Shown here: one piece after another, positions 13,910 to 18,252 of the stretch
Layout: each line of letters opens with the position of its first letter
Position numbering within the stretch: position 1 is the stretch's first letter
Virus record (IMG/VR): IMGVR_UViG_3300042876_000637
Location: 1-45,023 of that record
Strand: one strand, 5' to 3'
Origin: a virus
Length of the DNA: 45,023 nt
The notes under the pieces: generated by a model
What the model was told of the DNA's origin: nothing
The model's database searches: none
What the model saw: only the letters and a program-made list of their open reading frames with translations
Program-made: the position numbers and the translations under genes

Positions 13910-15319
13910 ATGACCAAAACCAACCGCAAATACAGCCCCCCATACCGCACCAACCAACCCAGTAATTTTTGCTTTACCGAACTCACCGCCGACGCGCTCA
14001 CCGATGGCCGCCCGTTTGATGGACTGGCCGTGGGCGAGTTCACCGACATGCACGGGCGGGCTGTCACCATTGCCCGCGCCGACCTGCCCACCTACGTAGA
14101 AAACACGCTGGCGGCCATTGCGGCCACCCAGGGCGAGAGCGGTGAACTGGCCGGGCTGCCCATTGACGCGCGCGACCACGAAAAGGGTGATGGCGCGGGT
14201 TGGATTGTGGGGGCCAGCACGGAAGGCGACCTAATCCGGCTGGTGCCGCAGTGGACGGAAATCGGGCGCGATTTGGTGGCGAGGAAAATCCGCCGCTTTT
14301 TCAGCGCGACCGTTGACCTGGCGAACAAGGTCATTCTCGGCGGCACCCTCACCAACTGGCCCGCGACCCGCGATGGCAAGGGGCGCGTGATGTTGCGCCC
14401 CATTGAACTCGCGCACGGCATTTTCCAGTTGTCCGATGGCGGCATGGAAGAGCAGGTGATGAAAGTGCGGCGGGCGTTCTACGAGGCTTATGCCGCGCCC
14501 GCCGAAGCGCCGATGGTGGATGAAGTTTTTCCCGACCACGCGATTGTGGAGGTCGGCGAAAAGAAGTTTAAGGCCGCCTACTCGGTGGATGATGCGGGCA
14601 CGGTGGTGTTCGCGCCCCGCGAGGAGTGGGTGGAAGTCGTTGAAACCTATGTGGAAGCGCGGGCGCAGCCGCCCGCTACTCAATTGGAGGATGAACCTAT
14701 GGCGTTGAAACTGGCTGACATGAGCGCGGAAGACCGCGCGGCCCTGACGGCGGCTGTGGTGGCGCAACTGCAACCGCTGGCCCCGCCCACCACCCCGCCC
14801 CCCCAGGCCCCCACCGCCGCGCTGCCGGTGGATTTGGCCCAGGTGTTGGGGGTGGATGTGCTGAGCGATGAGGGCAAGAAGAAAATCGCGCACTGGATGG
14901 AGCAGCAAGCGAAGGCAGTGCAGGAGCAAGCGCAACTGGCCTTCAACGGGCACATGGCCCGCATTCAGCGCGAAACGCAAGTGGCGGACCTCGCCCGCCG
15001 CGTGACCAGCGGCACGCCCGATGCCCCGCGCGGCCTGAAGAATGTGAAGGCCGACGAGTTGCAGCGGCGCTTGCTGGCCCTGCCCCACGATGAAGCGCAA
15101 TTCTGGGGCGGCCTGTTGGAAGGCGTGGTGAAGGACGGCCTGGTGAACTATGCCGAGCTAGGCCACGGCAAGCAACTGACCGGCGTGGCGGAATTGCCCG
15201 CCGAGGTGGCGAAGAAACTGGACAGCGGCGAGTTCACGCTGGCCGACCTGAAGAACCCCATTTTGGGCCTGGGCGACCTGGCTCAATACAACCTGAGCGC
15301 CTACACGGCGAAGAAATAG
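13910..15319 (+). CDS. Prohead protease-scaffold (Mu gpI-like)
   Basis: A 469-residue protein. The N-terminal 190 residues resemble the Mu I protease family (FTDMHGRAVTIARADLPTYV, LPIDARDHEKGDGAGWI, RFFSATVDLANKVILGGTLT, NWPATR). Asp-His within DARDHEK is the likely catalytic region. The C-terminal half is Pro/Ala/Gln-rich then helical (QQAKAVQEQAQLAFNGHMAR), as expected for scaffold. An internal start at 14699 gives the scaffold alone. It directly precedes the decoration and capsid genes. Confidence 0.82.
   Translation: MTKTNRKYSPPYRTNQPSNFCFTELTADALTDGRPFDGLAVGEFTDMHGRAVTIARADLPTYVENTLAAIAATQGESGELAGLPIDARDHEKGDGAGWIVGASTEGDLIRLVPQWTEIGRDLVARKIRRFFSATVDLANKVILGGTLTNWPATRDGKGRVMLRPIELAHGIFQLSDGGMEEQVMKVRRAFYEAYAAPAEAPMVDEVFPDHAIVEVGEKKFKAAYSVDDAGTVVFAPREEWVEVVETYVEARAQPPATQLEDEPMALKLADMSAEDRAALTAAVVAQLQPLAPPTTPPPQAPTAALPVDLAQVLGVDVLSDEGKKKIAHWMEQQAKAVQEQAQLAFNGHMARIQRETQVADLARRVTSGTPDAPRGLKNVKADELQRRLLALPHDEAQFWGGLLEGVVKDGLVNYAELGHGKQLTGVAELPAEVAKKLDSGEFTLADLKNPILGLGDLAQYNLSAYTAKK
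14699..15319 (+). CDS. Nested scaffold protein from an internal start
   Basis: GGAGG (14686-14690) stands 8 bases before an in-frame ATG at 14699 within the protease gene. Starting there yields a 206-residue product (MALKLADMSAEDRAALTAAV onward) that is exactly the scaffold part. Nested scaffold genes are known in Mu (I/Z) and lambda (C/Nu3). The spacing is ideal, so independent initiation is likely. Confidence 0.6.
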   Translation: MALKLADMSAEDRAALTAAVVAQLQPLAPPTTPPPQAPTAALPVDLAQVLGVDVLSDEGKKKIAHWMEQQAKAVQEQAQLAFNGHMARIQRETQVADLARRVTSGTPDAPRGLKNVKADELQRRLLALPHDEAQFWGGLLEGVVKDGLVNYAELGHGKQLTGVAELPAEVAKKLDSGEFTLADLKNPILGLGDLAQYNLSAYTAKK

Positions 15320-15331
15320 GAGGCAAACATC

Positions 15332-15829
15332 ATGGCTGTTTTGAGTGCCAACAAACAACGCCCGGTACGCATTCCGCCCGGTGGGTTGAACACCGCCGAG
15401 GTGAAACTGGCGGGTTACACGAATTTTGGCGCGGGCACGCTGGCCCACACGGTTTACAAAGGCTCCATCGTCATCTGCGACGTGAGCGACACCGATGGCT
15501 ATTTCCGCGCGTGCCCGCTTTCGTCCTCGGTGAACGCGGCCAGCGGCGACATCTTCGGCGGCGTGGCGGCGGAAAAAGTGGATGTGACCAGTGCCGACAC
15601 GGCGGACGGCTCGAAGAAATGCACGGTCTACCGCGAAGGCGTGTGGGGATTCCCCAAGGGCGGCTGTGCCATCACCGACATCGGCGCGCCCGCGTATGCG
15701 AGTGACGACGACACCATCACCCCCACCAGCACCAATAACTTTTTCGTGGGCGACATCGTGGATGTGGATGACACCTATGTGTGGGTGAACATCGCCCGCG
15801 CTTTCATGCGCCCCACCAGCGCGGCCTAA
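15332..15829 (+). CDS. Head decoration/capsid cement protein (DUF2190-like)
   Basis: A 165-residue protein with AGGAGG before ATG 15332. It has short beta strands and a pattern like other small capsid stabilising proteins (GTLAHTVYKGSIVICDVSD, GDIFGGVAAEKVDVTSADTA, VGDIVDVDDTYVWVNIARA). Position between scaffold and major capsid genes is the standard one for a cement protein. Confidence 0.72.
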   Translation: MAVLSANKQRPVRIPPGGLNTAEVKLAGYTNFGAGTLAHTVYKGSIVICDVSDTDGYFRACPLSSSVNAASGDIFGGVAAEKVDVTSADTADGSKKCTVYREGVWGFPKGGCAITDIGAPAYASDDDTITPTSTNNFFVGDIVDVDDTYVWVNIARAFMRPTSAA

Positions 15830-15850: not shown

Positions 15851-16819
15851 ATGCCTATTGTTCGCAGTGACATTTTGGCGCACCTGGAACGCGGGATGCG
15901 TGTGGGTTTTTTGGCGGGGCTGAAAGACTATGCCCCCAAGCGCGGGGCGTTCACGCGCACGGTGCCCAGCGATGGCGCATTTGAAATTTATGGTGACCTG
16001 GGGAGCCAACCCTGGCCGGTGCGCATGGCGGGGCAAGCGGGCGGCGGCACGGATGGCCGCACCGGTGGCCCCAGCGCGGGCGGCCTGCACGAAGGTGGCC
16101 CCATCGTGGTGTTGGGCGGCGAGGAACGCAATCTCGTGGTCTACAACTCCGACTGGGGCACGGCGGTGGGCATCTGGCACAACGCCATCAACGACGACCG
16201 CGTGGGCGGCCTGGAAGATTGGGCGCGCAACCAGGGCAAGCGTTTCGAGCAGCATAAAGATTATTTGTGCTTCGATGCGCTGAACTCCGGCGAGGCCACG
16301 ACCAACTATGGCGCGTGCTATGACGGGCTGTCGTTTTTCAATGACAGCCACTTCGACAAAGGCGCTGAGTACCAGACCGTGCAGGACAACAAGTACGCGC
16401 TCTCCCTCTCGCTGGACAATTTCGAGACGGTGCGGATTGCGGGCGGGAAGTTCAAGGATGGCCGGGGGCAACCCTACGGCGGCCTCGGTCACTCGCTGCT
16501 CGTCCACGCGCTCGACCTCGAGCGCACGGCGGCGCAAATCACCGATAACCCGCTGGCCTATGACACGGCCAATCAGGAGCGCAACCCCTACGCGGGGATG
16601 ATCCAGCGGTTGGCGGTGCCGGGGTCGTGGTTTGACTCCACCGCCTGGGTGCTCGTTGACCCGGATGTGAAGCCCATCCTGCTGCAAGAGCGCAGCGGGC
16701 CGGAGTTGATTTTCTGGGATGACTTCACCCAGGGCTCCGGCGTTCGCTATTACAAGTGGGTGGCGCGCTACTCGGTGGCCTATGGCGACTGGCGCGGGGC
16801 CATCATGGGCAATTCCTAA
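15851..16819 (+). CDS. Major capsid protein (Mu gpT-like)
   Basis: A 322-residue protein with AGGAG before ATG 15851. It matches the Mu gpT major head subunit family: GMRVGFLAGLKDYAPKRGAF at the start, GLSFFNDSHFDKG, GRGQPYGGLGHSLLVHAL, and LQERSGPELIFWDDFTQGSG near the end. Length is close to the family norm of about 305. It assembles into the HK97-fold head. Confidence 0.92.
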   Translation: MPIVRSDILAHLERGMRVGFLAGLKDYAPKRGAFTRTVPSDGAFEIYGDLGSQPWPVRMAGQAGGGTDGRTGGPSAGGLHEGGPIVVLGGEERNLVVYNSDWGTAVGIWHNAINDDRVGGLEDWARNQGKRFEQHKDYLCFDALNSGEATTNYGACYDGLSFFNDSHFDKGAEYQTVQDNKYALSLSLDNFETVRIAGGKFKDGRGQPYGGLGHSLLVHALDLERTAAQITDNPLAYDTANQERNPYAGMIQRLAVPGSWFDSTAWVLVDPDVKPILLQERSGPELIFWDDFTQGSGVRYYKWVARYSVAYGDWRGAIMGNS

Positions 16820-16831
16820 AGGAGCCCCCCC

Positions 16832-17650
16832 ATGAAGAAATTTTTGAACGACCCGCTCTCGAATGGCGTGGTGATTGTGGCACTGGTGTTGGCGGCTGTT
16901 TTTGGCGCTTGGATTGGTGCTCCCAATAATGATGTGACTGGCCTCGCCCTCACCGGCGGGGCCAGCAACTTCAGTCTTTTGCAGACCGCGGACGGCACGG
17001 TGAGCGAGCCGAGCCATGCGTTCACCAACGACACCGACTCTGGCCTCTACCGGATTGGCGCAAATAACCTAGGCGTTGCGGCAGGTGGCTCGAAGATTTT
17101 GGATGTGGGGGCTGCTGGTGTGTCTGTCTCCGGCATCCTCACGGTGAGCACGCTGGTGAGCCAAAGCGTTGGCGCCAGCGCGGCTTACATCACGGCGACT
17201 ACGGCCCTCAGCACGGCTTCCCTCACGGTGCCGGGCGCGGTGACGTTTTCTGGGAATGCCACCTCGACGGGCAACCTACAAGCCGTAAACATCACGGCCA
17301 CCACGGCGTTGAGTACGGCGGCGTTGACCACGGGTGGCGCGGCCACCATCGGCACGTTTCTAAAACTAACGGCGGCTACGGCCATCTCGGTGACCAATGG
17401 CGCAGCGTTCACCCCCACCGCGAGTTATCAACCGTTGACATCGGCAGGCACGGTGACGCCTACCATCGCTACCAGTGGGGTTTCCACTGGCACAGTGCTG
17501 CGGCTGGTCAATACCTCCGCTACGAGTATCGTGATTCAGGACACCGGCACGCAGGTGCTGGGCGGCGACCGCACGTTGGGCCAAAACGATGTATTGCTGT
17601 TGCTGTTTGATGGCACCAACTGGCTCGAAATGGCCTACGCCAACAACTAA
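16832..17650 (+). CDS. Fibre-like repetitive beta protein with N-terminal membrane segment
   Basis: A 272-residue protein with GGAG before ATG 16832. Residues 12-30 are a hydrophobic helix (VVIVALVLAAVFGAWIG), unusual for a virion protein. Then HAFTNDTDSGLYRIGANN, a motif common in tail and head fibres, and Thr/Ala/Ser repeats (ITATTALSTASLTVPGA, ITATTALSTAALTTGGA). The C-terminus (GGDRTLGQNDVLLLLFDGTN) is a compact beta end domain of a kind seen in capsid fibres. Likely a head or tail fibre. Confidence 0.65.
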   Translation: MKKFLNDPLSNGVVIVALVLAAVFGAWIGAPNNDVTGLALTGGASNFSLLQTADGTVSEPSHAFTNDTDSGLYRIGANNLGVAAGGSKILDVGAAGVSVSGILTVSTLVSQSVGASAAYITATTALSTASLTVPGAVTFSGNATSTGNLQAVNITATTALSTAALTTGGAATIGTFLKLTAATAISVTNGAAFTPTASYQPLTSAGTVTPTIATSGVSTGTVLRLVNTSATSIVIQDTGTQVLGGDRTLGQNDVLLLLFDGTNWLEMAYANN

Positions 17651-17651
17651 C

Positions 17652-18203
17652 ATGACCATCTGCGTGGCCGCCCAAAGCCTCGCACCATCGGCGGCGGTGA
17701 TGGCAGGGGTAACACCGCTGACATCGCCGCCGCTCGTTTTGAGCACGTTTGACCCGGCCATTTTGGCGGGCCACGATTTGGTGTTTTTCAAACTCCACGG
17801 GATGTCCGGCCAGCCCTATTGGTACGGGGATAGCGGCATCACGGCCTGCTCGGCAGAGCAGATTGGCCAGGCCAATCTCGCGGGCGCGCTGGTGTTCGTG
17901 GCGAACTGTTGGGGCGGTGAGGATGCTCCGATGGTGCAGGCGCTACGCACGGCGGGCGCGCTGGCGGTGGTCACGGGCACCGGCGTCAATTTTGCTGGGC
18001 AACGCTGGCCGGCCGGCGCGGATGTGCTGGGGCGCGTATGGCGGGTGGCCCTGAGCCTCGGGGCCACTGCCGAAATGGCGCTGGCGCTGGGTCGGGCCGC
18101 CGCGAAAATTCACAGCCCGCAGCTGCGCGTTGACCTGGATTCATTTGCGGTGATTGGCGAGCGCAAAGCGCGGCTGAACGGCAAGGCTACAAAGCGCGGC
18201 TGA
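17652..18203 (+). CDS. CHAT/caspase-fold (clan CD) peptidase-like protein
   Basis: A 183-residue protein starting 2 bases after the fibre gene. DLVFFKLHGMSG (His49-Gly) and later GALVFVANCWGG (Cys86) give the strand-His-Gly and strand-Cys order of clan CD peptidases such as CHAT and gingipain families. Between them is SAEQIGQANL, and after the Cys comes MVQALRTAGALAVVTGTG, both typical of CHAT folds. The last 8 residues were changed by a 26-bp tandem duplication. A caspase-like protein in a phage structural operon is unexpected. It could process virion or host proteins, or be an inactive mimic. Confidence 0.65.
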   Translation: MTICVAAQSLAPSAAVMAGVTPLTSPPLVLSTFDPAILAGHDLVFFKLHGMSGQPYWYGDSGITACSAEQIGQANLAGALVFVANCWGGEDAPMVQALRTAGALAVVTGTGVNFAGQRWPAGADVLGRVWRVALSLGATAEMALALGRAAAKIHSPQLRVDLDSFAVIGERKARLNGKATKRG

Positions 18204-18230
18204 ACGGCAAGGCTACAAAGCGCGGCTGAA
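18165..18230 (+). repeat. 26-bp tandem duplication at the 3' end of the CHAT-like gene
   Basis: A 26-bp unit starting AAAGCGCGGCTG occurs at 18165-18190 and 18191-18216, then its first 14 bases again at 18217-18230. Because 26 is not a multiple of three, the second unit shifts the frame and creates the present stop at 18201-18203. Without the repeat the reading frame would end in RKARLKADHMR. Confidence 0.9.
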
Positions 18231-18240
18231 AGCCGATCAC
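18221..18240 (+). repeat. Short palindromic motif, copy 1
   Basis: CGCGGCTGAAAGCCGATCAC contains CGGCT, a 3-base loop and AGCCG. A close copy (CGCGGCTGCAAGCCGCTCAC) is at 21219-21238. Both lie in short gaps between structural genes, just before a ribosome binding site. Confidence 0.6.
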
Positions 18241-18252
18241 ATGAGGTGAGAT

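What the first reader, a model, noticed from the sequence alone, without database searches (positions are those of the whole stretch)
17652..18203. CHAT/caspase-fold protein encoded among virion genes
Seen: strand-His49-Gly and strand-Cys86 motifs with the hydrophobic context and following AGA-VVTGTG segment of clan CD peptidases. Known: CHAT and related proteases act in bacterial immunity and programmed cell death. Inference: a small stand-alone member between the fibre-like gene and head-tail connectors could be a virion maturation protease, an injected effector, or a decoy for host caspase-like defence.
Basis: partly seen in the sequence, partly recalled or inferred. Interest (0 to 1): 0.75.

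Follow-up and report, generated by a model that had tools for sequence, protein, structure and literature searches.

The report
Phage caspase-like protein beside membrane spike
Viruses of Anaerolineae-type bacteria carry a small stand-alone protein with the fold and catalytic residues of caspase/gingipain proteases, almost always right behind a gene for a membrane-anchored spike, which makes it an undescribed phage protease-like family whose target can now be tested.

Summary
The ORF at 17652-18203 (+, 183 aa) has His49-Gly and Asn85-Cys86. Family libraries do not recognise it, but it belongs to a phage family of 21 distinct members found here. His49 and Cys86 are unchanged in every member seen.

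A confident AlphaFold2 model (pLDDT 93, pTM 0.90) matches gingipain RgpB (Z 15.8), SAVED-CHAT, separase and TPR-CHAT. Its profile matches the C-terminal half of the Peptidase_C25 domain of Anaerolineae proteins (E 1e-21), with His and Cys in register. The caspase/C25-type fold is therefore well supported; proteolytic activity is inferred.

In 18 of 19 distinct loci with the upstream gene complete, it directly follows a spike-like protein with an N-terminal membrane anchor or lipobox, in the capsid/connector gene block. One member lies in an Anaerolineales MAG, so the host is probably Anaerolineae.

A prohead-protease role is unlikely; injected-effector and decoy roles are untested. My best guess is an active cysteine peptidase working late in infection on, or with, the membrane-anchored spike. 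The pairing is not obligate: one phage has the peptidase without the spike, others a related spike without the peptidase. It is a new variant of a known kind.

The parts
17652..18203 (+). C25/CHAT-like caspase-fold protein, 183 aa; His49-Gly and Cys86 putative catalytic dyad
17796..17801 (+). codons of His49-Gly50 (invariant)
17907..17909 (+). codon of Cys86 (invariant)
16832..17650 (+). spike/fibre-like protein, 272 aa, with an N-terminal membrane anchor (predicted helix 10-28) and a tailspike-like C-terminal domain; the constant upstream neighbour
   Evidence: Phage_depo_C 26.9 bits; hydrophobic N-terminus in 18 of 19 loci; C-terminal domain resembles a tailspike depolymerase, E 2.1e-5
15851..16819 (+). 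Mu gpT-like major capsid protein (context)
   Evidence: PF10124 58.7 bits, phrog_371
13910..15319 (+). probable Mu gpI-like protease/scaffold protein (context; argues against a prohead-protease role for the C25-like protein)
   Evidence: position and motif; homologue in L001 matches Mu-like_Pro weakly, 16.6 bits, below cut-off

Best explanation
The gene encodes an active, minimal C25/CHAT-like cysteine peptidase with a His49/Cys86 dyad, corresponding to the catalytic C-terminal half of the C25 domain of cellular Anaerolineae proteins. It is made with the late virion genes, encoded 1 nt behind a spike-like protein whose N-terminal signal anchor (lipobox in some relatives) should place it in the host membrane. 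The peptidase probably acts in the infected cell on, or in complex with, this spike (processing or releasing it), or failing that on another envelope or virion protein at the same stage. Shown: gene, fold, conserved dyad, gene pairing. Inferred: catalytic activity, timing, and the spike as partner or substrate.
For: Fold: pLDDT 93 / pTM 0.90; RgpB Z 15.8, SAVED-CHAT 13.4, separase 13.3; Foldseek E 7.5e-6 to SAVED-CHAT and 5e-5 to gingipain R. Homology to C25: one search hits, Pfam C25 on those cellular proteins, hhalign E 1.2e-21 with His and Cys in register. Dyad invariant in 20/20 phage and 16/16 cellular sequences. Spike neighbour with membrane anchor in 18 of 19 loci, often with a gap of -1 to 13 nt. 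The pair occurs with a gpT-like capsid protein (window) and with a capsid protein carrying a large fused N-terminal region (L004).
Against: No enzymatic evidence. The pairing is not obligate: L034 has the peptidase behind a 60-aa holin-like protein and no spike; L055/L056 have a related spike with no peptidase next to it. The peptidase has no signal sequence, so a substrate beyond the membrane would have to be met before or during export. The spike as substrate rests on gene adjacency only.
Confidence: 0.4

Rival explanations
1. Host-directed effector or decoy: the protein is injected or made in the cell and acts on, or competes with, the host's own TPR-C25 peptidase or another regulatory or defence pathway.
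For: It is homologous to the catalytic half of host Anaerolineae TPR-C25 proteins; these lie beside a very large TPR protein and, in L048, an ftsZ gene. The caspase fold is used in bacterial defence: TPR-CHAT (PMC9729208).
Against: Located in the late structural block, not among early genes. The host TPR-C25 loci match no PADLOC model. Phage and host sequences are separated by a long 100/100 branch, not close mimics. A catalytic dyad need not be kept in a pure decoy.
Confidence: 0.2
2. Envelope or lysis protease: it helps to breach the host envelope at the end of infection.
For: Small holin-like membrane proteins stand next to it in L034 and in front of the spike in L038 (phrog_4712 E 0.0036 and 0.011).
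Against: Weak holin matches in only two loci; no signal sequence; no lysis genes recognised beside it in the window.
Confidence: 0.13
3. Non-catalytic virion or assembly component that uses the caspase fold only as a binding scaffold.
For: Flanked by virion genes; some residues around the cysteine differ from cellular C25: A84-N85 in phages where cells have E-A.
Against: Both dyad residues are invariant down to 34% identity, unlike what is expected of a scaffold.
Confidence: 0.17
4. Prohead (capsid maturation) protease.
For: It lies close behind the major capsid gene.
Against: A gpI-like gene precedes the capsid gene in the window and L001 (Mu-like_Pro match in L001 only, below cut-off); in the other group a large region is fused in front of the capsid domain (L004: Phage_capsid_4 at 661-965 of 969). 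A phage with a related spike, L055, shows no match to the family.
Confidence: 0.05

Closest known systems
Peptidase family C25 (gingipains; Anaerolineae TPR-C25 proteins, PF01364)
   Same: Same fold (RgpB Z 15.8); His and Cys in register; colinear over the C-terminal half of the domain.
   Different: Stand-alone, 183 aa, lacks the N-terminal half of the C25 domain and the TPR part; does not reach the Pfam model; phage-specific residues N85, G109, N113; no signal sequence.
CHAT proteases (SAVED-CHAT, TPR-CHAT/Csx29 of Craspase)
   Same: Same fold (Z 13.4 and 11.8-12.0; Foldseek E 7.5e-6); His-Cys dyad as in TPR-CHAT (PMC9729208).
   Different: No sensor or TPR domain attached; phage late gene, not part of a CRISPR or CBASS-type operon; sequence relatives found here are C25 proteins, not CHAT.
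Mu-type gpI and other phage head maturation proteases
   Same: Encoded in the same morphogenesis block.
   Different: Unrelated fold (from general knowledge, not tested here); a gpI-like gene is present separately.

Membership tests
Clan CD caspase/hemoglobinase fold | The fold itself | tested here: met
   Model pLDDT 93; RgpB, SAVED-CHAT, separase, caspases among the best matches
Clan CD caspase/hemoglobinase fold | His-Gly and Cys at the ends of neighbouring strands, conserved | tested here: met
   H49, G50, C86 invariant, 20/20 phage and 16/16 cellular; H49 follows strand 43-47, C86 follows strand 80-83
Clan CD caspase/hemoglobinase fold | Cysteine peptidase activity | not testable with these tools
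   Needs protein; coordinates for the dyad distance were not available either
Peptidase family C25 (PF01364) | Homology to C25 proteins | tested here: met
   hhalign 99.4%, E 1.2e-21 against proteins that pass the Pfam cut-off
Peptidase family C25 (PF01364) | Own match to the Pfam model | tested here: not met
   No match for P0001 at E 1, none in seven phage records (the control genomes did not ring either)
Peptidase family C25 (PF01364) | Complete C25 domain with its N-terminal half | tested here: not met
   The phage protein aligns only with columns 181-385 of 397
CHAT (PF12770) | Own match to the Pfam model | tested here: not met
   No Pfam match at E 1 and none for four members at E 5
Mu-type prohead protease | Own match to Mu-like_Pro or a PHROG head protease | tested here: not met
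   No Pfam or PHROG match
Known anti-phage defence protease | Match to a PADLOC model | tested here: not met
   None at E 1
Described phage protein family (PHROGs) | Match to a PHROG | tested here: not met
   None for the window protein at E 1, none for L007 and L040 relatives at E 0.5; no tblastn hit in 50,697 phage records

The most novel reading that the evidence does not exclude
The membrane-anchored spike and the caspase-like peptidase form a two-component phage device at the host surface: the spike is displayed on the infected or lysogenic cell and the peptidase processes it, or is triggered through it, to control spike release, superinfection exclusion or a membrane event. This would be a phage counterpart of caspase-plus-membrane-substrate systems.
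Probability: 0.2. Interest if true: 0.85.

Novelty: new variant of a known kind. Interest (0 to 1): 0.6.

Why it matters
Caspase-fold proteases in bacteria are mostly discussed as host defence or cell-death enzymes. A conserved, stand-alone family in tailed phages, kept with an intact dyad next to a membrane-anchored spike, would show phages using the same fold in their own late programme. The compact core of about 180 residues and a candidate substrate next door make the idea easy to test. It also gives a marker family for uncultured phages of Chloroflexota. A few searches of the held literature found no description of such a family, and it is absent from PHROGs, Pfam and PADLOC.

Tried and rejected
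Direct family searches (Pfam, PHROGs, PADLOC, NCBIfam), tblastn against phage and plasmid records and sequence search of the PDB gave nothing for the protein itself; the best PDB sequence hit, a fructokinase at E 0.075, is chance. Viral predicted structures (BFVD) gave no match at E <= 1e-3. The idea that spike and peptidase strictly depend on each other was tested by scanning for the spike N-terminus and rejected (L034, L055, L056). The prohead-protease role was rejected on context. A decoy role was considered through the host loci; nothing there points to phage targeting. The spike model is low-confidence except for its C-terminal domain. A PDB sequence search with the cellular C25 profile did not find gingipains, so the C25 link rests on Pfam and on the fold search.

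Full report
Observation. It starts 1 nt after the stop of the fibre-like gene (17650) and lies behind a Mu gpT-like major capsid gene (15851-16819) and a cement-like gene (15332-15829). The record is a 45 kb IMG/VR virus contig with a terminase and a large serine recombinase, so the phage may be temperate.

What it is, by sequence. No library knows it. Iterated scans of viral contigs and bacterial genomes gave relatives in steps: L001 (61%), L003-L006, L007, L008-L012 and L032-L040, plus a 4.5 kb contig of another genome drawn from the same phylum, G218 (L064). With the window that makes 21 distinct members (L036 and L037 are near-copies and counted once). L007 lies on a contig of an Anaerolineales MAG with the same gene order as the window, so the host is probably Anaerolineae. 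H49 and C86 are invariant in the 20 distinct sequences aligned, together with W57, Y58, G59, N85, G109 and N113; His-Gly and Cys are also present in L064.

What it is, by remote homology. The profile of seven members found longer cellular proteins, mostly with open frames of 540-930 aa, in 17 of 199 genomes of the class (G001, the genome of L007, among them); the best E for a cellular protein is 2e-18. The five I scanned match Peptidase_C25 at 36-63 bits (cut-off 23), and four of the five also carry TPR repeats. Profile-profile comparison of 12 phage members with six cellular domains gives 99.4% probability and E 1.2e-21; the alignment is colinear but covers only the C-terminal half of the domain. 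The cellular LHG..P.WYG and EACYG motifs fall on the phage LHG..QPYWYG and ANCWG motifs, and both catalytic columns are invariant on both sides. In a maximum-likelihood tree phage and cellular proteins are separated by a 100/100 branch: no sign of repeated recent capture, though the root is not known.

What it is, by structure. AlphaFold2 on the 12-member alignment gave pLDDT 93 and pTM 0.90. Foldseek's best matches are SAVED-CHAT (E 7.5e-6), TPR-CHAT and gingipain R (E 5e-5, TM 0.71 on the query length), then separase and caspases. VIA-align ranks gingipain RgpB first (Z 15.8, 3.2 A over 171 residues), then DdvA, SAVED-CHAT and separase.

The neighbour. In 18 of 19 distinct loci with the upstream gene complete, that gene encodes a spike-like protein with a hydrophobic N-terminus (Kyte-Doolittle mean 1.8-3.0 over 19 residues); only 20 of 172 longer ORFs in these loci have such an N-terminus, the spikes included. 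Several look like lipoboxes (for example L008 LIGC, L011 LVGC, read by eye), and most outside the window's own group carry LGxTHF after the anchor. In the window the spike has a predicted helix at 10-28 and a C-terminal domain matching Phage_depo_C (26.9 bits) and a solved tailspike depolymerase (E 2e-5). In L040 and L064 the upstream gene is cut by the contig end, with fibre-like C-termini visible. The exception is L034, where a 60-aa holin-like membrane protein precedes the peptidase (phrog_4712 E 0.0036); L038 has a similar small protein in front of the spike. Conversely L055 and L056 carry a related signal-bearing spike with no such peptidase next to it, and the family profile finds nothing in their records, which may be fragments. 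The link is strong but not obligate.

How it may work. Shown: fold, dyad, family, late-gene location and pairing. Inferred: it is an active cysteine peptidase, because both catalytic residues persist at 34-60% identity; and its partner or substrate is most likely the adjacent membrane-anchored spike, because the two genes stay together across phages with differently built capsid proteins. The main difficulty is topology: the peptidase lacks a signal sequence, so it would meet the spike before or during export, or on its short cytoplasmic tail. Rivals are a host-directed effector or decoy, an envelope or lysis protease, a non-catalytic binding protein, and a prohead protease. The last is unlikely because a gpI-like gene, or a region fused in front of the capsid domain, is present.

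Relation to known systems. It is homologous to C25 proteins and shares the fold of CHAT proteases, so it may well work like them. It fails two formal features of C25 (own Pfam match, complete domain), so I describe it as a C25-like phage family rather than a C25 member: a new variant of a known kind. BFVD held no significant structural match.

Verdict. The functional options should be reshaped around the membrane-anchored spike.

Noticed in passing
L043, L047, L048 (Anaerolineae genomes): The host TPR-C25 gene has conserved neighbours: a protein of about 1800-2150 aa (TPR-rich in the one scanned here), an unidentified protein of about 440-840 aa, and a gene that is FtsZ in L048 and starts like FtsZ in L043 and L047. 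Its role is unknown.
   Followed up: partly
window 18164-18241: A 26-nt unit is present in two perfect and one partial tandem copy across the 3' end of the C25-like gene, reaching past its stop codon.
   Followed up: no
L055 3935-5212, L056 3593-4870: Another phage group has a related spike with a signal-peptide-like N-terminus (FICLAIILVGALAYA before GTTHFT) but no C25-like gene next to it.
   Followed up: partly
L034 5749-5931; L038 4510-4743: Small holin-like membrane proteins stand in front of the peptidase (L034) or of the spike (L038).
   Followed up: partly
L004 812-3721; L005 2169-4559; L006 147-2960: The capsid protein of this phage group is the C-terminal part of a very long ORF with a conserved N-terminal region, possibly a fused protease/scaffold part.
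   Followed up: partly
BFVD A0A8S5MXG5: An uncharacterised Myoviridae protein is the nearest viral predicted structure (E 3e-3, TM 0.49 on the query) and may be another phage caspase-fold protein.
   Followed up: no
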